A stretch of 64,000 bases of DNA from contig CAXHKT010000125.1 of assembly GCA_964017195.1 (NCBI GenBank), forward strand, positions 372,001 to 436,000, in the 5' to 3' direction. Position 1 is the first letter of the stretch. The number at the start of each line of letters is the position of its first letter. This DNA is from Siderastrea radians. Its lineage: Eukaryota > Cnidaria > Anthozoa > Scleractinia > Rhizangiidae. A program made the position numbers and the translations under genes. This document shows, one piece after another, positions 2,642-52,827 of this stretch. The notes under the pieces were generated by a model, which did no database searches, was not told the origin of the DNA, and saw nothing but the letters and a program-made list of their open reading frames with translations.

Positions 2642-2650
2642 TAAACAGGA

Positions 2651-2707
2651 GTCAGATTGTTTCCGGACTGTCAGATTGTTTCCGGACTGTCAGATTGTTT
2701 CCGGACT
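2651..2707 (+). repeat. Terminal 19-bp motif, three tandem copies
   Basis: GTCAGATTGTTTCCGGACT is repeated exactly three times at 2651-2669, 2670-2688 and 2689-2707. The right tip has the inverse motif twice (52781-52818). The position at the very end suggests a transposase recognition site; this role is inferred. Confidence 0.9.
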
Positions 2708-2714
2708 CGATTTC

Positions 2715-2940
2715 CTACGCTTATTAAACAAATTGCCCGTCTTTTCTCCTTAATAAGCAGGTCTGACACGTCAAATTTGCTTGTTAATCAAAAAGGACGC
2801 TACTTTTGTGTTATTAAGCAAAAAAGGTAGCACTTTTTGCTTATTAACACGCACCTTTTGCTTAATAGCCAGAAAATTCCTGCCTATTAAGCAAGTAAAG
2901 GTATATGTTTCGGTTATTAAGCAAAAGTGTCGACAGACTT
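2715..2940 (+). repeat. Subterminal TTATTAAGC motif cluster
   Basis: Variants of GCTTATTAA or TTATTAAGCAAAA occur about eight times, roughly every 30 bp, in both orientations. The same core lies in every unit of the 47-bp satellites deeper in the element. A 67-codon frame here (2974-2771, minus strand) is also open in the right arm, but it is made of these motifs and the two copies differ by many amino-acid changes, so I do not call a gene. Confidence 0.65.
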
Positions 2941-3125
2941 TGCAAACAGAAGTTTTGTCGGCTTGAGCCGCCATTACGGGAAAAAATATCGAGGGCGATA
3001 ACTACTTAACAGAACAGTTTTATGAGAAAATACCTATCTAGCCGAAGGCAAGTGCGGGAATTCTTTCAATTTACCAGGAAAAAATCATAACTTTTACTTT
3101 AGTGGCCGAAAGTTTTCAAAAGTAA

Positions 3126-3167
3126 GGCCCGGTTCAGACGCCGTACCTCTCATGTGCCGTACCAAAT
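3126..3167 (+). repeat. Harbinger left terminal inverted repeat
   Basis: 42 bp identical in inverse orientation to 9875-9916. The motif TTCAGACGCCGTACCTC recurs just inside at about 3203, so the ends have subterminal repeats. Confidence 0.92.
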
Positions 3168-3348
3168 ACAATCAAGTTCGACTTTGGCACGGCGGCTGAT
3201 TCAGACGCCGTACCTCATTTTGCCGTACCAAATAAAAATAATAAATGGGATAGTTCATTTTGTGCTACATGAACATTATACTACCAGTTCCCATAGTAAC
3301 CATAACCTTGTCTCGTGACGACGACAACACGCAAATTAAGTATAAATA

Positions 3349-4641
3349 ATGGCGGACAAAGTGAGAAGAGCGATCATTTTTAAGAAAATAATCGAAGGTA
3401 ACAGAAGAAGAAGACGAGTTTTGGAAAATGCGTTGCATATAGCGATGTCAAGAAGGCGTGCGATCGTTAAACTGTGTTTCATCAGCCTGCTTTTGTTGCT
3501 GCAGTCTAGGCAAAATGCAACACCAATTAATCGGCCCCGGCGATTGCAACGAAACAGCGGGTGGTGGGACCTTGTCTGGAACACATATTCTGAAGAAAGG
3601 TTTGTCAAAACTTTTAGAGTGTCCCGTCGGACGTTTTGCTATATTCTTAGCCGAATTCGACACGTGCTGGAGAGGAAAACAGTAAATGAACAACCCGTAT
3701 CGCCAGAGTTACGACTTGCAATTTGTTTATACCGCCTCGCAAGGGGAGATTATTGTTACACTATTTCCACAATTGTGGCCACAATAGTGGCCACAATTGT
3801 GAGGGAAGTTTCACATACAATTGTTGAGACCCTTTGGCAAGAATGCGTGAGCCGCCATCTGCCTCAAAATCAACATGGCTTTGAGCGGAAGATTTTGGAC
3901 ATGGAAGAATTATGGCAATTTCCTTTCGCCTGGGGAGCAATTGATGGCTGCCACATACCAGTGAAGTGCCCACCGGGTGGCCTTCAAGCCTGTAAAGAAT
4001 ATCACAATTTTAAGAACTTTTACTCCATTGTGTTAATGGCAATAGTAGACTCAAACTACCGCTTCTTGTGGGGCAGTTGTGGTTTTCCCGGTAACTCGCA
4101 CGACTCGGTCATTTTCCAGTCCACTGACCTCTGGACAAACATTAAAGAGAAAGATTTTATCCCAAACATTGGCCAGCAAGTGGGTGATGTGTCAGTACCG
4201 CCGCTACTTCTCGGAGATTCTGCCTTCCCTTTTCAGCCTTGGCTGATGAAGCCATACACAAATGCGGTATTAACACCAGAGGAACGATATTTTAATTACA
4301 GATTGAGCAGGGCAAGAATGGTGACAGAGGGCGCATATGGACAATTGAAGGGAAGGTGGCGGGTATTGTTGCGAAAGTGTGAGAGCAGCACCGAAGTGAT
4401 AAAGGTAATGACCCTTGCCTGCATGGTGCTTCATAACATTTGCATTGACAGGGGAGACACAATGTGCAAACAACTCGATCTGACCCTTGACCCACTCACA
4501 AACGAGAGAAGAGACAGAGACACCATCCGAAAGCTACTTAAGATGAGGTCATGCCCTAAAACGCGCGATTCATGTGGTCAAGCCAGTAACATCAGAGATA
4601 GTTTGTGTGATAAACTGTGGAAGGAGAAATTAAGGTTGTAA
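3349..4641 (+). CDS. PIF/Harbinger transposase (HARBI1-like, DDE_Tnp_4)
   Basis: A single open exon of 430 codons. It resembles HARBI1-type nucleases, which cut and rejoin the element ends together with the Myb-like partner. Visible motifs: an N-terminal helix-rich region with FRVSRRTFCYILSRI; the first catalytic Asp in GAIDGCHIPV (about D199); CGFPGNSHDS; the second Asp in LLGDSAFPFQPW (about D290); and the Glu in ARMVTEGAYGQLKGRW (about E327), with 36 residues between D290 and E327. The C-terminal ACMVLHNICID is also typical. The start is the first ATG after the left TIR. A local triplication of 12-13 bases gives the odd run STIVATIVATIV near residues 141-152. Length is normal for the family (350-430). 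No stops or frameshifts are seen. Confidence 0.95.
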   Translation: MADKVRRAIIFKKIIEGNRRRRRVLENALHIAMSRRRAIVKLCFISLLLLLQSRQNATPINRPRRLQRNSGWWDLVWNTYSEERFVKTFRVSRRTFCYILSRIRHVLERKTVNEQPVSPELRLAICLYRLARGDYCYTISTIVATIVATIVREVSHTIVETLWQECVSRHLPQNQHGFERKILDMEELWQFPFAWGAIDGCHIPVKCPPGGLQACKEYHNFKNFYSIVLMAIVDSNYRFLWGSCGFPGNSHDSVIFQSTDLWTNIKEKDFIPNIGQQVGDVSVPPLLLGDSAFPFQPWLMKPYTNAVLTPEERYFNYRLSRARMVTEGAYGQLKGRWRVLLRKCESSTEVIKVMTLACMVLHNICIDRGDTMCKQLDLTLDPLTNERRDRDTIRKLLKMRSCPKTRDSCGQASNIRDSLCDKLWKEKLRL

Positions 4642-6190
4642 TATGGCAGATCCACTTGTATGAGTGCAAGGGTGGTGTTTAGGAGAGTTTATTACAATCT
4701 TAATTTCTTGTCATCGTTTCTGTGCTTCCACTGTTGTAGCTTTTAGTTTCTTTCAGCAGTTTGAAGTGGCATTATGATAAAAAATTCTTTTTTCTCTGCA
4801 GATTTCAAAATTATGTTCCACGCCAAATTTTAGGTGTTAATTTCGAGAGGTACCAGTTAATATATATTTTAACTGTGATTTCTTGGTTGGACTGTCTGCC
4901 ATAACCAAATTCTGTACTGGCTTAGTGGCAACAAGAGAGTTGGATCGAGGGTAAAAATGATGTCATCTACACAGGAGATTGACATTGAAGTGCGTGAATG
5001 CAGCTGTTTAGTATGCAGAGCAGGAGCTCAAACTCCTGTTCTGCATACTAAATAAGCTGCATTCACATACTTCAATATTTGTAATCTCGTGAGTAAAGAT
5101 GGTATCACTTTAAATTAACCCATAAACCAACTCTCTAATTGCAGCCAGTAGACATATCTAATTTGTCTGATTTCAGCTCAGTTATGAGTACCTTTTAATT
5201 ACAAGAATGGGTTACACAGGGAAAACATACTCTTCTAAAACAGGACCCAAATCAGACGAAACAAAAAAAGAAGCAATGTTTCACTGCATATGAAACAATA
5301 AGAATGGTTGAACATTGTGAATATACTGAACAGGGATTTATGTGAACCATACATTGTAAGTGTTGTACCAATAATGTCCAAGACAGAAACAGATGGGCAT
5401 TTGTACAGGAATTAGAACCTGTTGGCATGTACCTACACTGTGATTAACAAAAAGTTTGAGCATCTCACCTGTACACGTGCTTAACATATGACCCTACCTT
5501 TGACAAAGTTTTTGTAATACTCTTGATCATAAAAGTTTAAGTTGGATAAGAGTTATCTCTTTTAAGATTGTTTGGTGTGTAGTAATTGCTGTTTTATTAT
5601 TGTTAACTCTTGATGTAGGCCCAAAAAAATACGACAGAACTTTTAAATACATAGAGTGGTACTTACACAACAAACCGTCTTGATCTAAAAAGATTATGCT
5701 TATCGGCGGCATTCCTCATACCCATGTAAGCTACAAGCTTCTGTTTCATAATGACATGACTCACCACAAGTATTGTGTTGGCATTTGTATGTAAATTAAT
5801 TGCAAAGATTTTATTGCTCTTGCTCCTCATGAATGTTCAACAGCTTGCAAATAGTGTATTTTCTCACTTATTTAACATATCAAGAAACCAAAGGCTTATA
5901 ATTAAAGCAATTGTTAGATACATTAGCACCACAACGAGACATAAGAGAAGTGTCTGTCATTAAGTAAATGATTATAAGTTAAAGTTGTGTTGCTCGTAAT
6001 GTTAATGTTAATGTTCAAGAATGTGGAAGTAGTGTCTTCACTGAAACCAATGGAAAGTTGCTTGGGCATTAAATTCAAATCATGTTTTAAAATACCTGAA
6101 ACTGGTAATTACAACTGTTGTACATGTTTAGTTACATACAACCTCCTTAGTAATTTAATATAAAACATGCGTCAAGTCCTTCATTGTAAT
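4642..6190. other. Harbinger interior without genes
   Basis: 3' side of the transposase gene. Apart from the fold-back at 4955-5108 I see only AT-rich unique sequence; the short frames show no family motif and no supported splicing. Confidence 0.5.
4955..5108. repeat. ~150-bp imperfect palindrome
   Basis: The arms around GTATGCAGAGCAGGAG and CTCCTGTTCTGCATAC are inverse copies, and pairing extends out through GAATGCAGCT / AGCTGCATTC to about 4955 and 5108. The centre is near 5031. It is probably a small fold-back insertion or a hairpin of the transposon. Confidence 0.7.
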
Positions 6191-6597
6191 TTAAGGGGGC
6201 AATATACACATATGGCTTTTTTACGCAAAGTTTCGGCCTTTTTCTTATTAATAATTATCTCCATGAGATTTCATTCAATCCAAAACTGCTATCATATGAT
6301 CATAGTGCAAGTTCCCATAAATCTGAGAATTTTTTAGCGATTTTTAAAATAAACGTAAAGAAAGAGAAGTTTGGGGGGGGGGGGTTGATGAATTGGAAGA
6401 AAATTGAAAATTGTTTAGAATATGTAAGTTAAAGTTAATAATTAATAGACGGACACCAAAACAGTCCACAAACAAACCCAAGTGCTCTTGCGTGGGGGTG
6501 GACTGTCTGGGAGTGTGTACAAAAATTTAATCCTTCTTTTCTTTCTTTCTTTGATCTTATCCCATTTCCTCAAAATTCATGTATATTGCCCCCTTAA
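6191..6597. mobile_element. TTAA-flanked MITE, 407 bp
   Basis: Begins TTAAGGGGGCAATATACA and ends TGTATATTGCCCCCTTAA, an exact inverted pair with TTAA at each outer edge. TTAA is the target of piggyBac-type transposases. It has no coding capacity. It lies inside the Harbinger element. Confidence 0.8.
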
Positions 6598-6661
6598 CAA
6601 CAACTTATAACTTATCAAAATGATACACTCACCAAGCCAAAAGGTGATCAGAAAGCTATTT

Positions 6662-7894
6662 TAACCCTTTAAGCCCTAATAGTGACAAAAATGAAACTTC
6701 TCTTTTCATTATCACTACTTGTTCATCCAAGTGATGAGAATAAAGGACGTGATCAACACGGATAAGATGTATTGATATTTAGACAAATTCACCTTACTAG
6801 TTCCATAAGAAATGCATAGAGAACAGTAAGGAGAATATGCATTTTTATGTGACCGGGTTAGGTTCATGTTGTTATGTGAACAACAAACAAATGACTTTAG
6901 CCAAATAAGAATTCATTTAGCTAAAAGCAAAGCTAAACAATAGCAACTAAAAGAAAATGGCAAAAGGTTGAAAGCAGCTAAAGGAAAAACAAAACATGAA
7001 CAGTCTAGTTTTTAACAAGAATGTGTGACAAAAAAAGAAAAACAATTTGGACAAAGTAAATGTCACACAATCAAAAACTAGTCAATAAATAACTAAATGG
7101 TCCTGAGCCAAAGGAAACACAAATTTTGTCAACACAAGACAATTGTGTGGCTCAAGTGACACAAAAAGCTAAATTGGACAAAGTGCTATAAATAGTTTGG
7201 GTAAGCACTCAAACATGATAACAGCTATGAAAAACGTGTAAGGTCAAAACAATTAACCTGAGTCAAGCTAAACTCAATTCAACAGAGTGAAATGGTAATT
7301 AACTCACCAAAAACAAAACTAAACAAGACAGAAAACTAAACCAACACGAATGAGGACAAACAAAAAGGTGAGCCAAGAAAAGTACAGGCTCTTGTTGCTC
7401 AAAGGCTACAAAATCAGAGCCACAGATACTCAGAAACTATAGTGATGCAATTCAAAAACGTACCAAAGTTGACTTGTCTGGTAACAGGAGAACTAGCTGC
7501 TTTGAGATCTTGAGTGTAACTGAGCAAAACTAGTTTGTGACTATTTATTTCTGACTATTCTATTGATGTCATATCCTGTAACTTTTAAAAAAAGCCTGCA
7601 GTAGTTTATGCCACAGATCACCAAAACTCATGAAGAACTGAACCTTAACATGCACCAAAATATAAGAGAATAAGTGGAAGGTTATTTTCTCTGCCAAGTT
7701 ATGTTTAATACTCTGAAACACATTCATGACTTGTGGTGTCTAATGTGACACGAACATGGTTTCTGGCACTAACAATTTGGTTTGTTTCGCAAAAACACAT
7801 TCTTGTGAAGAAAACTAAATGATTCAAAATAAACTCCTAAATAAATAAAAAAATTGTGAACTTGGTCACATTTTTATCAGGGCTTAAAGGGTTA
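6662..7894. mobile_element. ~1.2-kb MITE, TAACCCTTTAAGCCCT ends
   Basis: Left TAACCCTTTAAGCCCTAATA and right TCAGGGCTTAAAGGGTTA are inverted copies. The target duplication is unclear. The body is A-rich and noncoding. Its right end lies 2 bp past the stop codon of the Myb-like gene, so it sits in that gene's 3' UTR. A shorter relative with CACTGGGGCTTAAAGGGT ends is at 41650-41850. Confidence 0.75.
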
Positions 7895-7895
7895 C

Positions 7896-9579
7896 TTAAA
7901 GACTTTGGTACACATTTCCCCTCTCAGGGGTTGATGGCAAATTTAGCCAGCCTGAAGAACTTGGGTCTAACGGGTAGCCATTGCAAAAGGGGGACTGAGA
8001 TTGTGTTCTTTGAAAGGTTGATCCCAGGTAGGATGGCTGTGACATGGTTCGCTGTTGTGGATTCTCGCTTGCTTCTGGCATGAATACTGGTTGAGAGAAT
8101 GGCCGGTGCATCATCAGCTCAAAAAGTCTGAGTTCATGTTGGCGAGACTTCTCTGCCTCTTCCTTTAGGTAGGCGACAAAATCTTTCATTGGATCATTTT
8201 CTAATTCATTTTTTACACACTCAAGAACATCTAACAGTTCACTGTCTTTCTTCTTTCCCTTTCTTTTCGAAGTTTTTACTGGGATGAACAATTTTGGTTG
8301 TGGTGTGCCTGAGGACTCATCTAAATCAACTACTGATTCGCTAACACAAGAAGTGGATGCTGATGGCTCAACTGCAAGTTCAGGTTGACATGATTCACGA
8401 GATTTAACAACTGAATAGAGGACTTCAAACCACTGTCCATAATTTTTGTCATCCTGAAAACGCTTAATCCCAGAAGCAGTTTTGATAGTTAATGCTGCTT
8501 TCTTACATAATTGTATTGCCTTCTTAAACTTTGTACGAACTTGATTAGGTGTAAATGTTACAGATTCATTTCTGTTGGCTGCCCTTTTCTTCAATTCACT
8601 TAATATTTTACGATAAATTTGTCCTGTTGTTTGGTTTTTTGTGTTAGTAAAAATAAGCTTTGACCTGTAATAATCATTGTTTACAACAATGTCAACTAAA
8701 TCACAGAGTAACTCGTCACTCCATTTTGCCCTTCTTCCCGGCTTGTGCCTTCGTACCGGTATTGCATCGTTACTTGAAGCTTCATTTGCATCATCATTCT
8801 CCGAGTTTGGATCAGGATCACAATCATTCCGGACTTCATCATCATCTTCAGTGTCAGAGGACTCGTCTAGGGCACCACTGCAGGGGGTAAGAAGAAGAAA
8901 ATGGTTAATCGTTTGGCCGAGGCTTCAGCCTATAGGTCAGAGAATTTGTACGGAAAGCCTATATACCGTTCTCAAGTTTAATATCAATTTCACTTGTTCA
9001 GCCATGATTTGAGCTTATGCAAGCAAAAAAACATTTCTACATGTACAGCTAACCTGAGTCGAGGACAAATACCTAAAACCAGCAGCACATCCAAACTTCC
9101 AAAGTTGACAGCATACCTTGCACTGCAGTGCGCGCTTCTCGATATAAGATTTACAAAGGAAACTATTTATAGACTAATCTCTTTTATGATTCTTGCATTT
9201 CTCGCAAACCAAGACTTGTAATGAGTATTTAAAATTTTGAAGGCGAAAGACCGGCTGCGAAACGAACAAACGGGATAAAATTATGGTCTGGTTTTGTCTG
9301 CCTGGTTGCTTGGCTGAAAAAATACCCATTTTTTCCGGAGTGTAGGCACTAAATGCGTAAAGAAAACGGAACTTACCTTTTCTGGTTACAGGATATTTGC
9401 TTTGTAGATTCACCATGAAATTCCCTTTTACACGGGTGACAGTAACCCACTTTTTTTCCGGCAACCCATCCTGGGGTAGCTTCAACAAGTTCTGGCAACG
9501 AACAAAGATTACATATTGGGAGGAGGCACTTTATACACAAGTATTTCGTCTCCTTGAAACAGGACATACACATCTCCAT
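7896..9579 (-). CDS. Harbinger Myb/SANT-like DNA-binding protein
   Basis: Two exons on the minus strand: 9579-9377 (203 nt, donor AG|GTAAGT) and 8877-7896 (982 nt, acceptor CTGCAG). Together they give 394 aa with the frame kept. The N-terminus has four CxxC-type pairs (CMSC, CIKC, CNLC, CHPC), a small zinc-binding domain. An acidic linker (SSDTEDDDEV) follows, then a Myb/SANT-like helix bundle beginning KWSDELLCDLVDIVV and running to about KNYGQWFEVLYSVV. The C-terminus is charged with a Lys-rich patch (KTSKRKGKKK). In known Harbinger elements this partner binds the TIRs and brings the transposase to the nucleus. It is convergent with the transposase gene. I am sure of the second exon; the first rests on a clean splice pair and phase. 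Confidence 0.82.
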
Positions 9580-9719
9580 TTTTTTAAATTTCCCGCTTCT
9601 TCCCCGGGAAGTTCCCGCGGCTTCTGTTCATCGCATTGCACATGCGCAATTGAATACCGTACAGAATTATGGGAAAGGTGATGTATTAAAATACATTTCA
9701 TTAATTTATGCATTAGATT

Positions 9720-9874
9720 CGGCACATGAGAGGTACGGCGTATGAATCCAAGTCGTGCCAATGCCGTATTATACGGCAAGCTCTGCCGTACCTTGGGAGT
9801 TTGCCGTACCTAATTCAATTTTGCCGTACCAAATTGATTCAGACGCCGTACTACTGTCGAACCATTACCGTATC
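9720..9874. repeat. Harbinger right subterminal repeats
   Basis: GGTACGGC / GCCGTACC blocks recur about eight times between 9720 and the right TIR, including TTCAGACGCCGTACTA at 9837. The left end has a shorter set. Clustered inverted copies at transposon ends usually serve as binding sites for the Myb-like protein; that role is inferred here. Confidence 0.75.
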
Positions 9875-9919
9875 ATTTGGTACGGCACATGAGAGGTACG
9901 GCGTCTGAACCGGGCCTAA

Positions 9920-12900
9920 GACTTCGCAGCGCGATCGATCGAGCGATCTGGCGAAGCCGTGAGATCTTTCACGTACGCGATTTCTGTAAACAGAGACAAC
10001 GAAACTCAACACTTTAACAGAGGAAATAATCCAGATAACGGGAATGTACAGAGAATATTCAGAGCTGTCTAAACCTGAAATACAATAAAGAGGAAATTTT
10101 AATTCGCGGTTTATTGTTTCTTTCGACAAAGAGAATAAAAATAACTGACACAGCGAAACGAACAACACAGTACAGCACGGCAATTATGTTCTTTATTATG
10201 AACTTAGCGATTCTTCCACGTTCACGATTTCTGTAAACAAAAGTCAGAGCAATGAATTAACAGATGAAATGCTGCGAAAACTGAATTAAACATCCAGACA
10301 CTTCTAAAACTAAATTTAACAACAAACAACAAAAAGATCTCATGACTTATTTCTAAATTCTTCCGAGAAGCGCCAAATTTAATCAAAACACGGCGAAATG
10401 AACAACACCGAGCGAGCGGGGCATTATCAATCGATTCACAGTTTAAAGATTCACAATTCTTTCCCCTCGCTCTAAAAAAACACTTCCCTAATAGAAAAGT
10501 AGAACAGTTTGACCTTCCATCTAGAAAAGCTCCTTTCTTAGCGGCGGAACTAATTTTCGTTCAAGAGTTTTGTACCAAGAATTCGCCAGTCTAATTTGAT
10601 TCGATAACAACGCATTTAATTTACAGGTAATGTGAAAACGGGAATACGTCGGATTTCCGGACGAAAACTCGGGGGGAGATAAAAATATAATCCCACAGCG
10701 AAACATTTTATTTATTGACCACGAAACATTGTTTTACGAAATCATTTCTACATACGCGGTTAAACTTTGCGAAACTGTCAAAACAGAGCGGCAAATCCGT
10801 CAGCTTTATTTTCAGCTTATTAGTCAGAAAAGTCAGAGCACAACAAACCAAATGCTGCAAAAACTAAAACATCCAGGCACCTCTACACCTTAAGTTTGAC
10901 AACAACGAAAACAACAAAAAAGGATTTTATGACTTGTTTCTAAATTTTGCCGCGAAGAACGGCTGAACTGAAAACACCATCAAAACACGACGAAATGAAC
11001 TACACCGAGCGGGGCATTATCAACTGATTGGATTCACGGTTAAAAGAATTCTTTCGCCTAGCTTTTGAAAAACACTTGCCTACACAACAGTAGAACAGTT
11101 TAACCTTCTAGAATTCAAATCTCCTTTCTAAGCGCGGGACTAATTTCTGTTCGAGGTTTTTGTTCCAAGAGTTCGACTCTAATTTTTCTGACAACAGCAC
11201 ATTCGGTAAAAGAAATACGTCGGAGTTCCGTATCAAAATTCGCAAGGGGATAAAATAGAACCCCATCGCGAAACATGGGATTTATTGAGCACAAATTTAC
11301 CACGAATCATTGTTTTTATGAAATCATCTTTACATACGTGGTACGATTATAAGCTTCAGTCTAAATAAAAGTTCGCCGGCAATTAACTTCGCGAAAGTGT
11401 CAACACGATATGAGACTCGGAGCGGCAAATGGTCCAACTTTCAGCTTATTAATCAAGAAAGTACTGCACTCGAAAGATAAGTATGGAATTTTCTACCTAA
11501 AATAATGGCCTGAAAGTAGTTGCTTCGACTGTTAACCGATCCATCAATTCTTTGCGAGTGAAATTGTGAACTGTTTTATACGAGTGCATTGAAGCTTGAA
11601 TCATGTTCTTTCACTGAAGGCAGCGGGCACTTTCCTTCCGGCAAATGTGCAACCGATTCACTCACCGGTCAAAATACCTGATTCTATTAATTTTGTTGGC
11701 ATGAAATTTAGAAAGGATACTTTCTAAGAGAAAATTAAAACCAGGAGCCCCTGGTAAAACAGATTTACTGTTTCAAAAGTCTCCTAGCTGCTACCTTCAC
11801 GGTGGAATTTTTTTTCATTGAAGAATTATAAATCTCCGAATCAAGATCAACAACAACACATTCAGGTAATGAAAATACGCCGATTTCCGTCTAGTTCCCA
11901 TACGAAAACTCAGACGGGCAAAAGGTATAACTTCATAGCAAAACATTTTATTTATTGTGCACAAATTACCTACGAAACATTATTTTTACGAAATCATTTT
12001 GGAGTCGCCGGACAAACTTTGCGAACTGTCAACATGAGATGAGATATGAGCGGCGAATCCTCCGACTTTAGCAGGGGTATTTTTCTTTTTTCGCAGAAAA
12101 AGACGATTCCCAGTTGAAAAATAGAATAGTCTGAGGATTTGGGAAGGTCTCTTTTTTCAATTGGAATGGTTTAAATTGAAAGAGAGATTTGTGTCATCTT
12201 AAAGTTCTGCAGTATTCGCTGCCCTATTCGAGCAAAACAAAACACAACACAGCGTTTCTTGTTCAAGCTTGATGCGACCGGTAATTCAAATACGTTAAAC
12301 AGTACTCTCGGTTAACTCATCCAACAGAGCCCATTTATCTAGAGTATATTTTTTGCTAGATGTACTTAGAGGTCCGAGCTGTGTACCCAGAACGAGTCAT
12401 TCTGACAGACTAAACAGAGAAAGCTCTTTCAGGTGTCCCTGCCTTGACATGCAAATTTTTAATTTAGTTTTAGCGCGAAATTTGTTTTTCGCGGGAAAAT
12501 AAATTTGATGGGTAATGAATGGCTTCTTACTATAGGCCTGTTTATTACAATTGTGTACAGGCTATAAAGTACCATCAGGTTAATTATTAACCCTCTGCGT
12601 AAATAGAAATGAGCTCACCTTCGCAAATTTGACGAAATCGTTTCCCTGGCCCGTCAGGCGTTACAACACAACCTCAAGGTTATTCATCTCACACACATTT
12701 AAAGTCTCCAAGTTGTTTTGACGCTCTTGTATTCCATATTTTGATCTTTAACTGCCGTTAATTAAATTTCTTCGTGATTCGCTTCCCGTAGGAGAAAAAT
12801 GTTTGTGAACTCTGAATTTGTCGGGTTGGCGATTTAGTTCATAGAGCAGTCCACGTGCAAAGCAAACTGTCTTTCCTTCTGAAGATGAGCAAAAGTCGTA

Positions 12901-13540: not shown

Positions 13541-13544
13541 AAAC

Positions 13545-40400: not shown

Positions 40401-42851
40401 CTCGCGAAGCTCAGGCAATGGTGCACCACAAAATGGAGCAATGGGGGTGGGGAGGGGATAGAATTTCAGTTTAACTGGAGGTGTGGTGGCCACAATGGTC
40501 CTGAATTGGGAGTTCAGATCGGCATTCTGGTTCCCAGTCGCTTCCATACAACTTGCATCAAATACCCTGTCATCCTAAAATCTAATGCATAGGAACTGGG
40601 TACAAGTTTGCGGGTTTAATTTGAGCTAACTGCTGTATGTGACTGGACACGTAGATACATTCAGCCCCCCCCCCACCCTCCTCTCTTCATTGTGACATTG
40701 CTCTCTAGAGAGGATGCATAGTATTGTTGTGGACCTGTTGTCCAAGACAGTGGTGTTTCTGTTTGTTTTGGTTGGGTGAGAATAGTTTAATTAGAAATGC
40801 AGTTCAGATTCCAACTTGGAACTTAACGCATGCTATCTCCAACATTAACCCGGCCGTTTCCTTTAAATGCTGTTGTACAGTTTTTGTTTTATTTACTGGG
40901 TATTGACAAGTGTCGATACATGTAACTAAAACAATTCTTTATTTCCCTTGAATGGTTGAGATAGCAGGGGTCTATTACTGCTGAAGAGTGATGCAGCCCA
41001 GAAAATACCATGTTGGTACGGCTGGATTAAGAAAATTTTTCGTTTTTACCCAAAATTGAAATGAGACTAATAAAGAATAATGGCAAGCAAAGCACATTTG
41101 ATGTGGTAACATGTTTATTCATTCGGGGGGGGCACTCCCTATAATGGCCTATACGTGGAGGCTCCGGGGGGGCACTCCTTATGATGGCCTATACGGGGAG
41201 GCTCCACCCAAAAGGGGTACCTTTTTCATGCTTCAGGTATATAAAAGGGTAGGGATTTCATGAGCTGAAGTATATGAAAGGGTAGGGAAATCTGTCATTT
41301 AGGTATTTAAAAGGACCTTTAATTAAAATATTTCGAGTTGATAATAACTTCTGGTTAGCATCTGTTCTCTCGCAATGTCGTTCATTAACTGCATTCCAAG
41401 GGTTTAGGAAAGGGATGCAGTGTTTTTGTTTAGGTACATGTGAAAGGGGTACCATTTTTCAATGAAGGGTATATGAAAGGGGTACCTTTTCGGTCAAAAA
41501 TGGTATATAAAAAGGGTAAGGGGTTGGACCTCGGGATGGAGCCTCCCCGTGTAAAACTTTGTTGAGTACCCCCCCCCCCCTCGGCATTCATTCCCCCCAA
41601 CACACAAAAAATTTGATAAGATAATTGTTATAAAATGATACAAGTACATTAACCCGTGAAGCCCCAGTGACCAGCATCTCCCTACAATAGCAATGCTTTA
41701 ATCAGGTTATCAGAATTAAGGAATTGATCACCAAACATGAATAGTGTAGATGTCAGTAGAAAGGAGTTCTCTGCACAAGTACTACAAGAACTGTATGAAG
41801 ACCAGTAAGGAGAATTTGTAGGTTTACACTGGGGCTTAAAGGGTCAATTGGTATGGAAAGCAAGAGTAGCTAACAAAGGGAAAGGGCGAATGTAGATTAT
41901 AGCACATGAAACGCTGCAACACTTCGCAAGGTTTTGGCGCCTTTTTCGTTCATTCATGTGAGCGATTCTTGTTCCGTTTAAATTCCTTTTCTCATTTTTC
42001 CTGTTCTTTCTTGACTATTTTTTTAATAGTGGTTAAGTTTTTAATAAAACAATTATTCTACTCGGGCTTGCTGGATATCAAATGATTATAACCACGCGCC
42101 TCGTTGGTTATCTATCATTCGATATCCAGCGCGCCCTCGTAGAATAATTGTTAAATATAGGCAGATCGAGATTCGACCGCCTTAAGCGATCCTCGCGCGA
42201 TCCCCACGCGACAAATTTAAATAGCCTAGTACACAGTTCCAGTCTCCAAAAAAAAGTACATGTAGTAATAACATTTCCTTGTAGATACGCAGGATTCTTC
42301 CTTTTTTAAAATTGTACCGCCTTCCTGATTAGATTTCTGTAGGTGGTATCAAATTTGAATATTTGAGAAAATTTAATAATGTTGAACTTGGAGCACCCAG
42401 ATGGGATTAAACTTAACACCTGTTTCTGGTTTGAGAAACAACAGTGTCATTAATACATTGTAAATACTGGTAATTTTAATACATACTTCCAGTCTCAAAA
42501 GAATTAACAATGCAGGCTGCACAAATGAAGTGGTTGTTACTAGGTTTTGTTATTGTAGCTACTAGACAACTTAAAGATACCAATTTCTTAATGCTTATTT
42601 GTATGAAGGAATCCCTTCAAATACATACTTTCATTCTCAAAGAGAAATAACAATGCAGGCTATACAGTCTGTGCACTTGAAAAGGTTTTAATCAGGCTTT
42701 GTCATTGCATAGCTGGACTACTCAATAACTGGATATATTTCTTTTGCAGAAAACCGTGAAGGGATGGAGCTACATTGATGCCTCCCAATTTGAGGCAAAA
42801 AACATATTTCAGCAAGTAGCTACAAAATCACGACTCAGAGAGCGGAAGTGA
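28494..42851 (+). CDS. Micro-exon gene of the giant element, charged coiled-coil-like protein
   Basis: Function not recognised. Proposed exons: 28494-29141, 29422-29526, 30737-31030, 31418-31450, 31633-31692, 33889-33951, 34361-34426, 35326-35370, 35768-35800, 37103-37165, a micro-exon array 38203-40251, and 42750-42851 (stop TGA). Every one begins and ends in phase 0, so any exon can be skipped without breaking the frame. With all intact micro-exons the protein is about 646 aa. Exon 1 has an acidic-basic repeat, then PPRKKRRRAGELSGRQMAIQ (NLS-like) and a globular-looking block (FTIKMPPNARNLLRELRKVL); exon 3 continues it with a CREC motif. Small exons encode Lys/Glu-rich heptad-like segments (KDLIKQLEDAKK, ELEELKAKENVALAK). 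The last exon encodes KGWSYIDASQFEAK. The start ATG at 28494 is the first in frame; the frame is open a little upstream. Exon 2's acceptor (TTAAG) is weak. Confidence 0.7.
28540..28880 (+). repeat. Acidic-basic coding repeat in exon 1
   Basis: About ten copies of a 30-36-nt unit, e.g. GGAAAGAGAAGAAGAAAACG followed by GAAAAGAGATGATG, encode EREEENGKEMM-type peptides. Units vary by substitution and by 3-nt multiples, so the frame survives. The opposite strand is also open, which is a by-product of the low-complexity purine content. Confidence 0.85.
29316..29497 (+). repeat. 91-bp tandem duplication covering exon 2
   Basis: CATGCTGCAGTTAAGCTTAT starts at 29316 and again at 29407. The copies differ at few sites. 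Only the second copy stays open to a donor (CTCAAG|GTAATG at 29526); the first runs into a TAA at the junction (TTTCTTTAAC). Confidence 0.85.
29527..30736. other. Intron 2 of the micro-exon gene
   Basis: About 1.2 kb of AT-rich sequence. No repeat or RNA gene is recognised with confidence; a few short frames look random. Confidence 0.4.
31780..33716. mobile_element. Tc1/mariner-type nonautonomous element, 1.9 kb
   Basis: The left end CAGTCAAACCTCTATTAAGC and the right end GCCTAATACAGGTTTGACTG are inverse at the tips, with TA on both sides (31778-31779 and 33717-33718). CAGT-type ends with a TA duplication fit Tc1/mariner. Internal blocks near 32755-32870 repeat the end sequence (GACCGCTTGATAGAGGGTGA). 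No transposase is left. It lies between exons 5 and 6 of the micro-exon gene. A relative starts at 63845. Confidence 0.75.
33455..33545 (+). mobile_element. tRNA-like SINE head fragment
   Basis: GATAGCCAGGTGGACTTATA and, downstream, GACCCGGGTTCGACTCTCAG resemble A- and B-box parts of a tRNA-derived SINE, followed by a TTTTTCTTTTG-rich tail. It does not fold as a convincing tRNA by eye. It sits inside the Tc1/mariner-type element. Confidence 0.4.
34695..34778 (+). other. Possible terminating exon (alternative end)
   Basis: After a good acceptor (TTTCTTGACAG) the phase-0 frame reads LQREDRVLIDFLKEQNKDL, continues the coiled-coil-like style, then meets TAA at 34776-34778 without a canonical donor. 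If included after exon 7 it would give a short protein lacking the micro-exon array; if skipped, exon 7 joins exon 8 (35326) in frame. Alternatively it is an exon that lost its donor. Confidence 0.45.
36020..36180 (+). mobile_element. tRNA-derived SINE
   Basis: TAGCTCAGTGGTTAGAGCAT (A-box type) and GGGTTCGACTCCCGATG (B-box) are spaced as in a tRNA. They are followed by the tail hairpin GACTCAGATTTTTTCTGAGT, which marks a SINE rather than a tRNA gene. It lies in an intron of the micro-exon gene. Confidence 0.7.
36571..37030. mobile_element. ~460-bp fold-back MITE
   Basis: CATAGAGGGCAAAATTACTG ... CAGTAATTTTGCCCTTATG are inverse ends. Pairing continues through GATTGCTGATTGGTTGAGAC / GTCTCAACAATCAGCAATC and further inward (AGCAGGAGAGTGTGGC / GCATGCTCTCATGCTCT). 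Noncoding; it lies just upstream of exon 10 (37103). Confidence 0.75.
37970..40260 (+). repeat. Array of 33-nt micro-exons with ~168-bp unit
   Basis: Each unit is intron plus a 33-nt phase-0 exon encoding AASKSKDAQTS or a variant. Exons: 38032-38064, 38203, 38371, 38537, 38708, 38879, 39044, 39215, 39383, 39548, 39719, 39890, 40056 and 40219 (each 33 nt). The first has lost its acceptor (TTTCAG to TTTCAT). The others keep TTTCAG| and |GTAAGT. The variants are AASKSKNAQTS, AASKSKNAQTF and AASTSKSGETS. A block of six units is duplicated at 1011-1012 bp spacing. The ancestor resembles the lone exon 31418-31450 (AASISNNAQTS) and its flanking introns. Confidence 0.93.
40252..42749 (+). other. Last intron of the micro-exon gene
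   Basis: 2.5 kb of repeats. 41120-41590 has paired GGGGGGGCACTCC ... GAGTACCCCCCCC ends and repeated AAAGGGGTACC blocks. 41650-41850 is a MITE with AAGCCCCAGTGACC / CACTGGGGCTTAAAGGGT ends. 42049-42152 is a fold-back starting AACAATTATTCTACTCGGGC. No gene is seen. Confidence 0.55.
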
Positions 42852-44465: not shown

Positions 44466-44533
44466 TAAATTCAAAGGCTGCTATTTAATGACAGATAAAG
44501 ACAGTATGTTACAATGTAGTTCTCGATATCTAT

Positions 44534-44774: not shown

Positions 44775-44783
44775 GATATCCAT

Positions 44784-45620: not shown

Positions 45621-46074
45621 GCTCCTGTCTACAACTTCCTGATATGACTACTACTGCACTTCAAGCTGTCATGACTGTTTACGCTTATCAATTTCTCCGT
45701 TACCTAGTAGGTAAACAGAAACACAGCATGTTACAAGTAAAGGTTACAAAACGAACATATATAAGTAACTGAACAAGTCCAGTTTAAGAAATGACATCTT
45801 TCAATGTGCTCTGAGCAGTAAAATGATGTGATTTAACTACAAAACGTTCTTCAAATGTTGAACATGTAAACAGTGACTTAGGTTTTATAAACAGAAGTGC
45901 CTGTAACTCTGCTTAAGACGCTTGTTTAATTAACTCACAAGTGCGGCTTGAATTCTGTTGGTGAGTTTTTGTTGAAAAAAATAAGTGGCATAAATGTGTT
46001 TGTCAGGTGACTTGGATTTAATTAAATGACTACCAGTTAATTTGTTGGTGAATTTTGTTCATACAGAGCTGATT

Positions 46075-49000
46075 TTTGTTTAATAAACGAAGGTGTCCAT
46101 CTGTCAGTTTCATTGGACACGTTTGTTTAAGAAACACAAGTGTCCGTATGTCAGTTTCATTGGACACATTTGTTTAATAAACACAAGTGTCCGTATGTCT
46201 GTTTTACTGGTCAGTTTTGTTTAATAAACACAAGTGTCCATATGTCAGTTTCATTGGTCACTTTTGTTTAATAAACACAAGTGTCCATGTCTGCTTTACT
46301 GGTCAGTTTTGTTTAATAAACACAAGTGTCCATGTGTCAGTTTCATTGGCCACTTTTGTTAAATAAGCACAAGTGTCCATATGTCTGTTTCATTGGTCAC
46401 TTTTGTTTAATAAACACAAATGTCCATATGTCAGTTTCATTGGCCACTTTTGTTTAATAAGCACAAGTGTCCATATGTCTGTTTCAATGGTCACTTTTGT
46501 TTAATAAGCACAAGTGTCCATATGTCTGTTTCATTGGTCACTTTTGTTTAATAAGCACAAGTGTCCATATGTCTGTTTCATTGGTCACTTTTATTTAATA
46601 AACACAAGTGTCCATATGCCTGTTTTATTGGTCACTTTGGTTTAATAAGCACCAGTGTCCATATGTCTGTTTCATTGGTCACTTTTGTATAATAAGCACA
46701 AGTGTCCATATGTCTGTTTCAATGGTCACTTTTGTTTAATAAGCACAAGTGTCAATATGTCTGTTTCATTGTTCACTTTTGTTTAATAAACACAAGTGTC
46801 CATATGTTTGTTTCATTGGTCACTTTTGTTTAATAAACCCAAGTGTCCATATGTCTGTTTCATTGGTCACGTTTGTATAATAAGCACCAGTGTCCATATG
46901 TCTGTTTCATTGGAAACTTTTGTATAATAAGCACAAGTGTCCATATGTCTGTTTCATTGGAAACTTTTGTTTAATAAGCACAAGTGTCCATATGTCTGTT
47001 TCATTGGTCACTTTTGTTTAATAAACACAAGTGTCCATATGTCTGTTCCATTGGTCACTTTTGTATAATAAGCACAAGTGTTCATATGTCTGTTTCATTG
47101 GACACTTTTGTTTAATAAGCACAAGTGTTTGTCTATTTCATTGGTCACTTTTGTTTAGTAAACAGAAGTGTCCATATGTCTGTTTCATTGGACACTTTTG
47201 TTTAATAAGCACAAGTGTCTGTCTGTTTCATTGGTCACTTTTGTTTAATAAGCACAAGTGTCTGTCTGTTTCATTGGTCACTTTTGTCTGATAAACACAA
47301 GTGTCCATATGTCTGTTTCATTGGACACTTGTTTAATAAGCACAAGTGTCTGTCTGTTTCAGTCGTCACTTTTGTCTAATAAACACAAGTGTCCATATGT
47401 CTGTTTCATTGGACACTTTTGTTTAATAAGCACAAGTGTCTGTTTCATTGGTCACTTTTGTTTAATAAGCACAAGTGTCCTTATGTCTGTTCCATTGGTC
47501 ACTTTTGTTTAGTAAACAGAAGTGTCCATATGTCTGTTTCATTGGTCACTTTTGTATAATAAGCACAAGTGTCCATATGTCTGTTTCATTGGACACTTTT
47601 GTTTAATAAGCACAAGTGTCCTTATGTCTGTTCCATTGGTCACTTTTGTTTAGTAAACACAAGTGTCCATATATCTGTTTCATTGGTCACTTTTGTTTAA
47701 TAAACACAAGTGTCCATATGTCTGCTTTACTGGTCAGTTTTGTATAATAAGCACAAGTGTCCATATGTCTGTTTCAATGGTCACTTTTGTTTAATAAGCA
47801 CAAGTGTCCATATGTCTGTTTCATTGGTCACTTTTGTTTAATAAACCCAAGTGTCCATATGTCTGTTTCATTAGTCACTTTTGTATAATAAGCGCCAGTG
47901 TCCATATGTCTGTTTCAATGGCCACTTTTGTTTAATAAGCACAAGTGTCCGTATGTCTGTTTTACTGGTCACTTTTGTTTAATAAGCACGTGTCCATATG
48001 TCTGTTTCATTGGTCACTTTTTTTTAATAAGCAGAAGTGTCTGTCTGTTTCATTGGACACTTTTGTTTAATGAGCACAAGTGTCCGTATGTCTGTTTCAT
48101 TGGACACTTTTGTATAATAAGCACAAGTGTCCATATGTCTGTTTTATTGGTCACTTTTGTTTAATAAACACAAGTGTCCATATGTCTTTTTCATTGGCCA
48201 CTTGTTTAATAAACACAAGTGTCCATATGTCTGTTTTATTGGTCACTTTGGTTTAATAAGCACAAGTGTCCGTATGTCTGGTTTATTGGTCACTTTTGTT
48301 TAATAAGCACAAGTGTCCTTATGTCTGTTCCATTGGTCCCTTTTGTTTAATAAACACAAGTGTCCATGTCTCTGTTTCATTGGACACTTTTGTTTAATAA
48401 GCACAAGTGTCCATATGTCTGTTTCATTAGAAACTTTTGTTTAGTAAACAAGTGTCCATATGTCTGTTTCATTGGTCACTTTTGTATAATAAACACAAGT
48501 GTTCATATGTCAGTTTCATTGGGAACTTTTGTTTAATAAGCACAAGTGTCCGTATGTATGTTTCATTGGACACTTATTTAATAAGCCCAAGTGTCCATAT
48601 GTCTGTTTCATTGGAAACTTTTGTTTTATAAGCAAAAGTGTCTGTTTCATGGGACACTTTCGTATAATAAACACAAGTGTCCATTATGTCAGTTTCATTG
48701 GGAACTTTTGTTTAATAAGCACAAGTGTCCGTATGTATCTTTCATTGGACACTTGTTTAATAAGCACAAGTGTCCACATGTCTGTTTCATTGGAAACTTT
48801 TGTTTTATAAGCACAAGTGTCTGTCTGTTTCATTGGACACTTTTGTTTAATAAACACAAGTGTCTGTTTCATGGGACACTTTCGTATAATAAACACAAGT
48901 GTCCATATATATTATGTCTCTTTCATTGGAAACTTGTTTAATAAGCATAAGTGTCCGTATGCCTATTTCATTGGTCACTTTTGTTTAATAAACACAAGTG

Positions 49001-49410
49001 TCTGTATGTCTGTTTCATTGGACACTTTTGTTTAGTAAGCACAAGTGTCCGTATGTCTGTTTCATTGGTCACTTTTGTTTAATAAGCACAAGTGTCCGTA
49101 TGTCTGGTTTATTGGTCACTTTTGTTTTATAAGCACAAGTGTCCATAGGTCTGTTTTACTGGTCACTTTTGTTTATTAAGCACAAGTGTCAGTATGTCTG
49201 TTTTATTGGTCACTTTTGTTTGATAAACACAAGTGTCCATATTCAGTGGTTACTTTTGTATAATAAACACAAGTGTCCATTCGGCTGTTTCATTGGTCAG
49301 GTTTTTTTAATAAACACAAGTGTCCATACTTATGTCTGTTTCAGTGGTCACTTTTGTTTAATAAACAAAAGTGTCCATATTTCTGCTTAATTGGTCACTT
49401 TTGTTTGATT
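46075..49410 (-). repeat. 47-bp satellite in right TIR
   Basis: About 70 copies of the 47-bp unit in inverse orientation to the left arm, e.g. GTCTGTTTCATTGGTCACTT followed by TTGTTTAATAAACACAAG and TGTCCATAT. The array is nearly 1 kb longer than its partner, so the two arrays have changed size independently although the flanking TIR sequence stays close. Confidence 0.95.
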
Positions 49411-52400
49411 TAAAAAACGGTGCACCAAATCTCTGCAAGTGGTCACTTTGGTTGCTATATCAAACAAAAATCTTTATAAATAAAATATTCATAAAATATA
49501 ATTCATAAAATATTTTGGTGGTGATTTGGTTTAATAAACACAAGTGCCTTAAGTCTCTAGCAGTGGTCACTTTGGTTAAATAAAGACCAAAGCGTCATCG
49601 CGAGCTCATCTCTCAGTCTGCGACGGCCGCTGAGATCGTCGCTTTATCACCTGAAAAGCGCTGTCATCACTCGCATTAAGTGTTTCATCTGTTTGATTCA
49701 AGCGCAAGATAAACTACATTTTTGTCTGAATTAGATGTGCACCAAACAGTTGTAGCTTCAGGGAATCGACCTGCGTTTCCATGCAAAACTGAATCCCGTG
49801 CGTTCCTGCAGGGGTGGGGAGGGTGGGGAAAACTGTCAAAGTACCATCGGCCAGCTCTCCACACAAGCGTGTTCTGTGCGTTCTACACATTCAGTGAATA
49901 TCGCGTTCTAGTGTCAGACAGCGAGTGGATCAGAATGTTTTAACTTCAAACAGACATTTTTACAGAAGGTTTCTGGTGGCTGTTGAATGGGATCAAGAAT
50001 GGCCATCTATACAAGGAACACGACTTTTGCTCATCCTCAAAATGAAAGACAGTTTGCTTTGCACGTGGACTGCTCTATAAACTGAATCGCCAACCCGACA
50101 AATTCAGAGTTCACAAACATTTTTCTCCTACGAGCAGCGAGTCACGAAGAAATTCACTTAACGGCATTTAAAGATCAAAATATGGAATACAAGAGCGTCA
50201 AAACAACTTGAGACTTTAAATGTGTTTGAGGTGAATAACCTTGAGGTTGTGTTGTAACGCCTGACGGGCCAGGGAAACGATTTCGTCAAATTTGCGAAGG
50301 TGAGCTCATTTCTATTTACGCAGAGGGTTAATAATTAACCTGATGGTACTTTATAGCCTGTACACAATTGTAATAAACAGGCCTATAGTAAGAAGCCATT
50401 CATTACCCATCAAATTTATTTTCCCGCGAAAAACAAATTTCGCGCTAAAACTAAATTAAAAATTTGCATGTCAAGGCAGGGACACCTGAAAGAGCTTTCT
50501 CTGTTTAGTCTGTCAGAATGACTCGTTCTGGGTACACAGCTCGGACCTCTAAGTACATCTAGCAAAAAATATACTCTAGATAAATGGGCTCTGTTGGATG
50601 AGTTAACCGAGAGTACTGTTTAACGTATTTGAATTACCGGTCGCATCAAGCTTGAACAAGAAACGCTGTGTTGTATTTTGTTTTGCTCGACTAGGGCAGC
50701 GAATACTGCAGAACTTTAAGATGACACAAATCTCTCTTTCAATTTAAACCATTCCAATTGAAAAAAGAGACCTTCCCAAAATCCTCAGACTATTCTACTT
50801 TTCAACTGGGAGTTGTATTTTTCTGCAAAAAAAAGAAAGAAAAATAACCGTGCTAAAGTCGGAAGATCCGCTGCTCATATCTCATCTCGTGTTGACAGTT
50901 CGCAAAGTTTGTCCGCCGACTCCAAAATTATTTCGTAAAAATAATGTTTCGTAGGCAAATTGTGCACAATAAAATTTTTTTTTTTTTGCTATGAGGTTAT
51001 ACCTTTAGGCCGTTCGAGTTTTCGTATGGGAACTAGACGGAAATCGGCGTATTTTTATTACCAGAATGTGTTGTTATTGATCTTGATTCAGAAATTTGAT
51101 TCTTCAATGAAAAAAATTCCACTGTGAAGGTAGGAGTCTTTTGAAACAGTAAATCTGTTTTACCAGGGGCTCCTGGTTTTAATTTTCTCTTAGAAAGTGT
51201 TCTTTCTAAAATTCATGCCAATAAAGTTAGAATCAGGTATTTTGACCGGTGAGTGAATCGGTTGAAGGAAAGTGCCGCCGCGTTCCGTATAAAACAGTTC
51301 ACAATTTCACTCGCAAAGAATTGATTGATCGGTTAACAGTCGAAACAACTACTTTCAGGCCATTATTTTAGGTAGGAAATTCCATACTTATCTATCGAGT
51401 GTGGTACTTTCTTGATTAATAAACTGAAAGTTGGACGATTTGCCGCTCCGAGTCTCATTTGTGTTGACACTTTCGCGAAGGTAATTGCCGGCAAACTTAG
51501 CTTTTAATCGTACCACGTAACTATGTAAAGATGATTTCGTAAAAACAGTGGTTCTTGGTCAATTTGTGCTCAATAAATCACGTTTCGCGGTGGGGTCATA
51601 TATTATTCCCTTGCGAGTTGTCTTACGGAACTCCGACGTATTTCTTTTACCGAATGAGTTGTTGTCAGACAAATTAGAGTCGAACTCTTGGAACAAAAAC
51701 CTCGAACAAAAATTTATTTAGTTCGGCGCTAAGAAAGGAGATTTTAATTCTAGAAGGTTAAACTGTTCTACTGTTGTGTAGGCAAGTGTTTTTCAAAAGC
51801 TAGGCGAAAGAATTTTAAGTCTTTTAACCGTGAATCCAATCAGTTGATAATGCCCCGCTCGGTGTAGTTCATTTCGTTGTGTTTTGATGGTCTTTTCAGT
51901 TCAGCCGTTCTCCGCGGAAAAATTTAGAAACAAGTCATAATTAAATCTTTTTTTGTTCTTTTCGTTGTTGTCAAACTTAAGGTTTAGAGGTGCCTGGATG
52001 TTTTATTTTTAGCAGCATTTCGTTTGTTGTGCTCTGACTTTTCTTTACAGAAATCGGGAACGTAGAAGAATCGATTGATCAATATTAATTCCCGCGCTGT
52101 GCTGTATTGTTGGCTTCACTGTGTGGTATTACCTGACTATGTCGAAAGAAGTATTTAAAAAAAGCGAATTAAAATCTCTCTTTATTGTATTCCAGGTTTT
52201 AACAGCTCTGAATATTCTATGCATATTCCATTTATCTGGACTGTCTGGGATTATTTCCTCTGTTAAAGTGTTATGAGTTTCCTTGTCTCTGTTTACAGAA
52301 ATCGTGTACGTGAAAGATCTCACGGCTTCGCCAGATCGCTCGATCGATCGCGCTGCGAAGTCTTACTTTTGAAAAATTTCGGCCGCTGAAATAAAAGTTA

Positions 52401-52780
52401 TGATTTTTTCCCGGTAAATTGAAAGAAATCCCGCACTTGACTTCGGCTAGATAGGTATTTTCTCATAAAGCTGTCCTGTTAAGTAGTTATCGCCCTCGAT
52501 ATTTTTTTCCGTAATGGCGGCTCAAGCCGACAAAACTTCTGTTTGCAAAGTCTGGCGACACTTTTGGTTAATAACGCAAACATATACCTTAATTTGCTTA
52601 ATAGGCAGGAATGTTCTGGCTATTAAGCAAAAGGTGCGTGTTAATAAGCAAAAAGTGTTACCTTTTTTGCTTAATAACACAAAAGTAGCGTTCTTTTTGA
52701 TTAACAAGCAAATTTGACGTGTCGAACCTGCTTATTAAGTAGAAAAGACGGGCAATTTGTTTAATAAGCGTAGGAAATCG

Positions 52781-52818
52781 AGTCCGGAAACAATCTGACA
52801 GTCCGGAAACAATCTGAC
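52781..52818 (-). repeat. Terminal 19-bp motif, two tandem copies
   Basis: AGTCCGGAAACAATCTGAC occurs twice, inverse to the triple motif at the left tip. The following TCCTGTTTA completes the right end. Confidence 0.9.
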
Positions 52819-52827
52819 TCCTGTTTA

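What the first reader, a model, noticed from the sequence alone, without database searches (positions are those of the whole stretch)
2642..52827. A ~50-kb element with ~7.2-kb inverted repeats and its own D-D-E-type gene
The tips are exact inverses, the arms match over kilobases, and the arms enclose just two original genes in divergent order. Size, arm length and gene pair do not fit any animal DNA transposon class I know (Polinton, Teratorn, Zisupton and usual cut-and-paste elements differ in gene content or size). It may be an undescribed giant transposon group.
Basis: partly seen in the sequence, partly recalled or inferred. Interest (0 to 1): 0.95.

Follow-up and report, generated by a model that had tools for sequence, protein, structure and literature searches.

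The report
Giant two-gene coral jumping DNA
A 43-kb piece of mobile DNA in a coral-like animal genome, with long mirror-image ends and its own pair of genes, appears to belong to a giant and possibly undescribed kind of jumping element.

Summary
The window carries a 50,182-bp unit (2644-52825) with mirror-image ends, arms of about 6.5 and 6.75 kb, and two head-to-head genes. The obvious DDE ORF (3349-4641) is not its own: it lies in a complete PIF/Harbinger element (3126-9916; 42-bp perfect TIRs, TAA duplication) nested in the left arm. Without it the unit is 43,388 bp. The host genome (804.8 Mb) holds sister copies. Of 17 inverted tip pairs tested (window not counted), 14 have an exact 4-bp target duplication. 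A 42,474-bp sister on contig C328 sits in a ~163-bp satellite, and other satellite units show its empty site: a giant copy has moved. The likely transposase is the minus-strand gene (Pfam DUF7869), which models as an integrase/mariner-type RNase H fold with three invariant aspartates. At 10 of 15 loci a second, coiled-coil-like gene has DUF7869 beside it, always head-to-head. Three 47-bp arrays repeat a motif found in the tips. No paper in the open-licence library names DUF7869. Repbase/Dfam could not be searched, so a new superfamily is likely but unproven. The window copy itself lacks an exact target duplication.

The parts
2644..52825 (.). Whole transposon, 50,182 bp (43,388 bp without the nested Harbinger and one TAA)
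   Evidence: inverted tips, arms, limits fixed by sister copies, lengths
2640..2643 (.). Left flank TATA at the place of a target duplication; the right flank (52826-52829) reads TAAT, so the window copy has no exact 4-bp duplication (one inserted A would explain it; unproven)
2644..3125 (+). Left tip: AACAGGAGTC, three 19-bp repeats (GTCAGATTGTTTCCGGACT, 2651-2707) and four matches to the motif CACTTTTGCTTATTAA (up to 3 mismatches, both strands)
3126..9916 (.). Nested PIF/Harbinger element, 6,791 bp, 42-bp perfect TIRs, TAA duplication (3123-3125 / 9917-9919); a guest, not part of the giant element
   Evidence: the 14 fetched GGAG-tipped sister ends run across the site; intact site in the right arm
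3349..4641 (+). Harbinger transposase ORF (DDE_Tnp_4, E 5.6e-30) inside the guest
7896..8924 (-). Second ORF of the Harbinger guest (342 aa, stop to stop; no Pfam hit)
9920..15908 (+). Rest of the left arm, with a 47-bp tandem array at 13541-15908 (about 51 units, 90 motif matches on both strands)
17442..28206 (-). Multi-exon DUF7869 (PF25273) gene, putative transposase. Exons read here: 28206-28165, 28082-27993, one from 27869 (end not fixed), 23952-23653, 23441-23326, 22984-22690, 22322-22198, 21986-21857, 21490-21332, 20649-20533, 19798-19166, 17507-17442 (stop). The first three and the last are by eye only, without homology support
24534..27660 (.). 47-bp tandem array in an intron of the DUF7869 gene (about 60 units, 53 motif matches)
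   Evidence: an array at a similar position in a distant paralogue
28493..42851 (+). Second gene, head-to-head with DUF7869: protein with a coiled-coil-like middle, ending ...KTVKGWSYIDASQFEAKNIFQQVATKSRLRERK; the start codon is uncertain (the frame is open from 28416)
   Evidence: exons joined in JGI protein P0081
38016..40261 (+). About 171-bp tandem array that repeats one 33-bp exon (AASKSKDAQTS) of the second gene
46074..52341 (-). Right arm, with a 47-bp array at 46074-49409 (about 72 units, 123 motif matches on both strands)
52342..52825 (-). Right tip: CTCCTGTT outermost, two 19-bp repeats (52781-52818), four motif matches

Best explanation
It is one copy of a family of giant, foldback-like DNA transposons. 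Shown: related units are dispersed in the host genome, end in inverted AACAGG(A/T)GTC tips, and mostly sit between 4-bp target duplications; one 42-kb copy has an empty site. Inferred: the DUF7869 protein is a DDE-type (D-D-D) transposase. It binds the CACTTTTGCTTATTAA-type motifs in and near the ends, pairs the ends, and moves the unit by cut-and-paste with a staggered 4-bp cut. The partner protein is an accessory factor. The long arms and 47-bp arrays offer many binding sites that may help very distant ends to meet. Shorter foldback copies and giant relatives without an obvious gene would move in trans.
Confidence: 0.8

Rival explanations
1. A giant non-autonomous passenger: the tips are real, but DUF7869 and its partner are cargo or captured genes, and the transposase that moves the family is another protein encoded elsewhere.
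For: A 28-kb relative (C2, AGAG tips) with a matching 4-bp duplication (TAAA) shows no DUF7869 match in the pieces searched and no ORF over 140 aa in the 22-kb interior scanned, so movement in trans seems to occur in this wider family. No biochemistry exists.
Against: DUF7869 lies near two tip families (GGAG, GGTG) beyond chance, is open in C328, stays with the second gene across paralogues, and models as an integrase fold with invariant aspartates.
Confidence: 0.13
2. A giant PIF/Harbinger element driven by the DDE_Tnp_4 ORF in the left arm.
For: A canonical Harbinger transposase and a second ORF in opposite orientation lie inside the outer limits.
Against: They sit in a complete guest with its own 42-bp TIRs and TAA duplication. 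The 14 fetched GGAG-tipped sister ends run across the site. The outer tips and 4-bp duplication are not Harbinger-like.
Confidence: 0.01
3. A host segmental inversion, palindrome or assembly error rather than a mobile unit.
For: The window copy lacks an exact target duplication and lies on a minor contig (C119), as does C328.
Against: Sister copies in other places have exact duplications, and the C328 copy has an empty site.
Confidence: 0.02
4. A member of a superfamily already catalogued in Repbase/Dfam under another name, seen here as an unusually long copy. This can be true together with the best explanation.
For: I could not search Repbase or Dfam. DUF7869 proteins are found in many marine invertebrates, so curators may have met them.
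Against: Pfam calls the domain unknown. No transposase model of Pfam or NCBIfam matched the exons and homologues scanned, and no paper in the library names DUF7869.
Confidence: 0.25

Closest known systems
Galileo / Foldback-type elements (Drosophila; PMC3688188, passages read)
   Same: Long inverted ends with internal tandem repeats. In Galileo the repeats hold extra transposase binding sites, suggested to offset length and add specificity.
   Different: Galileo is of the P superfamily with a THAP domain and ends of more than 1 kb. Here the arms are about 6.5 kb, the unit is 43 kb, the duplication is 4 bp, and the gene is DUF7869; no THAP or P-element Pfam match was found in what was scanned.
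Retroviral integrases and mariner-type transposases (fold level)
   Same: Predicted RNase H-like core with similar order of strands and helices and acidic residues at the expected kind of places (the rule for such places is recalled).
   Different: No sequence match to any of them. DUF7869 has its own GHTHEDIDQ and CxxC signatures, introns and a partner gene.
PIF/Harbinger
   Same: Two genes in opposite orientation; one complete Harbinger sits in the left arm.
   Different: The giant unit has other tips, a 4-bp duplication and DUF7869 in place of DDE_Tnp_4.
Polinton/Maverick and Teratorn (PMC6431247: outline and first part of section 6 read; what is said of these two is recalled)
   Same: Tens to hundreds of kilobases with inverted ends in animals.
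   Different: No virus-type gene among the 10 ORFs scanned, and duplications are neither 6 bp nor fixed TTAA. The length here is introns, arrays and arms.

Membership tests
Class II TIR (cut-and-paste type) DNA transposon | Dispersed copies with inverted ends at unrelated places | tested here: met
   flanks compared (only short repeats of 150-190 bp shared, among three GGTG pairs)
Class II TIR (cut-and-paste type) DNA transposon | Fixed-length target duplication | tested here: met
   4 bp in 14 of 17 pairs; empty site for C328. Window copy itself: not exact (TATA/TAAT)
Class II TIR (cut-and-paste type) DNA transposon | Encodes an RNase H-fold D-D-D/E transposase | tested here: inconclusive
   Model and invariant aspartates agree; activity not testable here
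PIF/Harbinger (whole 50-kb unit) | 3-bp TWA target duplication (recalled) | tested here: not met
   4-bp duplications of varied sequence in sister copies
PIF/Harbinger (whole 50-kb unit) | Harbinger transposase belongs to the unit | tested here: not met
   It lies in a nested guest
PIF/Harbinger (nested guest 3126-9916) | DDE_Tnp_4 gene, TIRs, TAA duplication | tested here: met
PIF/Harbinger (nested guest 3126-9916) | Myb/SANT-like second protein (recalled) | tested here: inconclusive
   342-aa ORF at 7896-8924, no Pfam hit
piggyBac / Kolobok / Teratorn | TTAA-only target duplication | tested here: not met
   TCTA, TGGT, ACTT, TCCA and others; TTAA in one of 14
Galileo/Foldback | Long, internally repetitive inverted ends | tested here: met
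Galileo (P superfamily) | P-type transposase with THAP domain | tested here: not met
   Pfam scans of the exons and homologues find DUF7869 and no THAP or P-element model; exons not scanned could hide one
EnSpm/CACTA | CACTR tips (recalled) and tnp2 transposase inside the unit | tested here: not met
   Tips are AACAGG; the tnp2 ORF is outside, at 53682-54743
Repbase superfamilies in general (20 listed in PMC9587614, passage) | Transposase matches a catalogued superfamily | not testable with these tools
   Repbase/Dfam not held; only Pfam, NCBIfam and PDB searched

The most novel reading that the evidence does not exclude
DUF7869 proteins, found here in cnidarians, molluscs, echinoderms, nemerteans, lancelets and an ostracod, are the transposases of an undescribed animal DNA-transposon superfamily. 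Its autonomous members are giant two-gene foldback units that carry large arrays of their own end-binding motif. They also mobilise 22-43-kb relatives, of which the one read through holds no obvious gene.
Probability: 0.55. Interest if true: 0.87.

Novelty: new variant of a known kind. Interest (0 to 1): 0.8.

Why it matters
DNA transposition becomes less efficient as the ends move apart (PMC6431247, section 6, part 1). Here a whole 42-kb unit with only two genes has demonstrably moved, and such units carry well over a hundred copies of a tip motif in arrays. This makes the old question of how distant transposon ends find each other testable. It also suggests a function for a Pfam family of unknown function with many copies in this genome, whose proteins are mostly called 'uncharacterized' or 'hypothetical' in coral, mussel and urchin annotations.

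Tried and rejected
Rejected: the Harbinger DDE ORF as the element's own gene; a mere assembly palindrome for the family. Led nowhere: viral contigs held neither the exact tip nor a relative of the large DUF7869 exon. The coral MITEs of PMC2872659 (passages) are piggyBac-type TTAA elements, and the string AACAGG does not occur in that paper's main text. NCBIfam gave nothing useful. Pfam gave only weak helix-turn-helix matches, under the curated cut-offs, near the N-terminus of P0008. The PDB sequence search gave no transposase, only a C-terminal match of the homologues' profile to NIPBL, which a single-protein search of P0003 did not repeat. A distant paralogue at C1:13.87M had no inverted ends within the 29 kb fetched. 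Families absent from the VIA list are not thereby excluded. An empty site for the window copy was not obtained: the search did not complete.

How counts were made: one search listed only C328 and C12 pieces longer than 300 bp and over 95% identical, so less alike pieces (much of one arm array, for example) were dropped. One search used 41 tip places with 0 or 1 mismatch and 105 typed DUF7869 places from the capped list (153 matches; rows beside one already typed were left out). One search regrouped all 27 second-gene rows into 15 loci and compared them with a hand-picked set rows on the same contigs. Of the 8 AGAG-type inverted pairs visible in the capped list, I fetched 7. The motif was chosen by eye from tips and arrays; it is nearly palindromic in the arrays, so one unit can count on both strands. 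Papers: eight searches; only listings were seen, except PMC6431247 (outline and section 6, part 1), PMC3688188, PMC9587614 and PMC2872659 (passages).
Full report
What is there. The window lies on contig C119 of an 804.8-Mb assembly of 439 contigs. By best protein hits the host is an anthozoan, probably a stony coral; it is not named and I did not identify it. Inverted tips at 2648 and 52821 are exact; 100 shuffles of the window gave no match. The arms match over kilobases. Comparison with sister copies fixes the outer limits at 2644 and 52825, because AACA/TGTT belongs to the ends. The unit is 50,182 bp.

A guest in the left arm. Between 3125 and 9917 the left arm holds 6,791 bp that the right arm lacks. 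It starts and ends with the same 42 bp in inverted order and is flanked by TAA. It holds a DDE_Tnp_4 transposase ORF (E 5.6e-30) and a second ORF in opposite orientation. This is an ordinary PIF/Harbinger element. The 14 fetched sister ends with the GGAG tip align to the window on both sides of the site with nothing Harbinger-like between (the GGTG ends do not align that far in), so I take it that the guest landed later. Without it and one TAA the giant unit is 43,388 bp.

The family is mobile. The host genome has 62 forward and 67 reverse tip matches with up to 3 mismatches, against 16 and 14 for the control pattern; these counts include inner 19-bp repeats of the same tips. Of the 26 exact places, 16 form 8 inverted pairs (the window included) and 10 stand alone. 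I fetched the ends of 17 inverted pairs besides the window: 7 with the GGAG tip, 3 with GGTG and 7 with AGAG. At one fixed tip offset, 14 of 17 have an exact 4-bp duplication: TCTA three times, TGGT, ACTT, TTTA, TCCA, ATAA, TATA, TAAA twice, ATAT twice, TTAA. The two ATAT cases lie in AT repeats and weigh little. Of the three failures, C4a has a 5-bp duplication (CGAAT), C1b has a changed right end and C2a a changed left tip. Flanks differ between pairs apart from repeats of 150-190 bp shared by three GGTG pairs. The window copy reads TATA on the left and TAAT on the right. One inserted A would explain it, but this is unproven.

A second giant copy and an empty site. The C328 copy (42,474 bp) is in the opposite orientation. 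The pieces listed (longer than 300 bp and over 95% identical, other pieces dropped by that filter) match the window unit at 95.3-99.4%. It sits inside a satellite of about 163-bp units. Its two flanks, joined with one TCCA, match one other stretch of the flanks over 115 bp with one mismatch and another over 121 columns with one mismatch and one gap; more units match at 92-97%. This is a paralogous empty site and shows insertion of a whole 42-kb unit with a 4-bp duplication.

Relatives. Five GGAG copies of 7.6-13.4 kb are foldbacks: their arms are 96.8-99.9% identical in the main pieces compared (C24: 99.87% over 3,005 bp; in C3 and C7a the pieces are offset). The 18.6-kb C12 copy keeps the last five DUF7869 exons listed and gave no match to the first four in the pieces searched. 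AGAG-tipped relatives span 22-43 kb. The one I read through (C2, 28 kb) has a matching TAAA duplication, a tip 67-68% like the window's over about 495 bp, no DUF7869 match, no ORF over 140 aa in the 22-kb interior scanned, and about 5.4 kb of a 59-bp array.

The second gene starts near 28493 and ends at 42851. A JGI protein (P0081, 1,676-bp contig) joins its exons: 9 of 11 placed pieces follow AG, and 9 of 11 precede GT, the last ending at the stop; its first residues read into the upstream intron, and some repeat exons were not placed by the script. I infer a partly spliced transcript and real introns. A first exon 98% alike is in an ENA contig (P0083), and two Desmophyllum proteins are relatives. 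No Pfam family reaches its cut-off; the middle looks like a coiled coil. In the host genome 27 matches fall into 15 loci. Ten have a listed DUF7869 match within 30 kb, and in all ten the two genes are head-to-head, down to 38% identity. Three of the ten (C119, C328, C25) are close copies of one family. For the other five the capped DUF7869 list decides nothing.

Linkage of tips and DUF7869. Of 89 clusters made from 105 listed DUF7869 matches, 7 lie within 30 kb of one of 41 near-exact tips, where 0.27 are expected under even spread. One of these (C119:453277) is a neighbour outside the element. The clusters at C8 and C2 have a GGTG tip on one side only, and C25 a GGAG tip on one side only.

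Arrays. Three 47-bp arrays (13541-15908, 24534-27660, 46074-49409) repeat a motif that also occurs four times in each tip. CACTTTTGCTTATTAA with up to 3 mismatches occurs 286 times in the window on both strands, 266 of them in the arrays, against 0-5 in ten Markov controls. I chose the motif by eye from tips and arrays; a version one base different is verbatim in the left tip. It is nearly palindromic in the arrays, so one unit can count twice. The other relatives sampled have it mainly in the tips: the fetched ends of the small GGAG copies give 3-4 matches each, and the AGAG copy next to none. The array unit folds on itself better than its shuffles (z -4.6). The distant C1 paralogue has a 64-bp array between the DUF7869 exons found and the second gene, with a similar stretch (CACTTGCGATTAATAA).

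How it most likely works. Shown: insertion of a whole giant unit, tip identity, 4-bp duplication in most pairs, an open gene in a second giant copy. Inferred: DUF7869 is the transposase, the motif is its binding site, the partner is an accessory protein, and the arrays and long arms raise the chance that ends 43 kb apart are held together. The closest working parallel is Galileo, where extra transposase binding sites were found in the long repetitive ends (PMC3688188, passages). That is a likeness in build and perhaps in working, not membership: no THAP domain or P-type Pfam match was found.

Novelty. Pfam lists DUF7869 as of unknown function. No paper in the open-licence library contains the name, and I saw no description of such a unit in the listings of seven further searches, which is weak evidence. 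Repbase and Dfam were not available, so 'new superfamily' is a probability, not a result. I file it as a new variant of a known kind (a DDE-type DNA transposon) with the bolder reading kept in the section on the most novel reading.

Noticed in passing
window 53682-54743 (+), and 1199-2329 (+): Right of the element lies a tnp2 (Transposase_21, E 5.8e-17) ORF; ORFs left of it look, by recalled resemblance only, like the N-terminal part of such a gene, so the giant element may have landed in an intron of an EnSpm-like gene.
   Followed up: partly
window 38016-40261: A tandem array of about 171 bp multiplies one 33-bp exon (AASKSKDAQTS) with its splice sites, giving a gene whose repeat number could vary between copies.
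   Followed up: partly
G000 C2:60197343-60225368 (L041, L049-L051, L042): A 28-kb relative with good tips and TAAA duplication but no ORF over 140 aa in the interior scanned and a 59-bp array: a giant transposon without an obvious gene.
   Followed up: partly
L053-L055 (C1:13866000-13895000): A distant DUF7869/second-gene pair with a 64-bp array between the DUF7869 exons found and the second gene, as in the window but with a different unit.
   Followed up: partly
G000 C10:8812736-8921232: Seven DUF7869 matches of equal score in about 108 kb, the last five about 9.1 kb apart: a likely tandem cluster of another branch.
   Followed up: no
[not shown]
   Followed up: partly
window 58487-59663: A stretch 90% identical to part of L052 (C2:43448500 onward): another dispersed repeat near the tnp2 ORF.
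   Followed up: no
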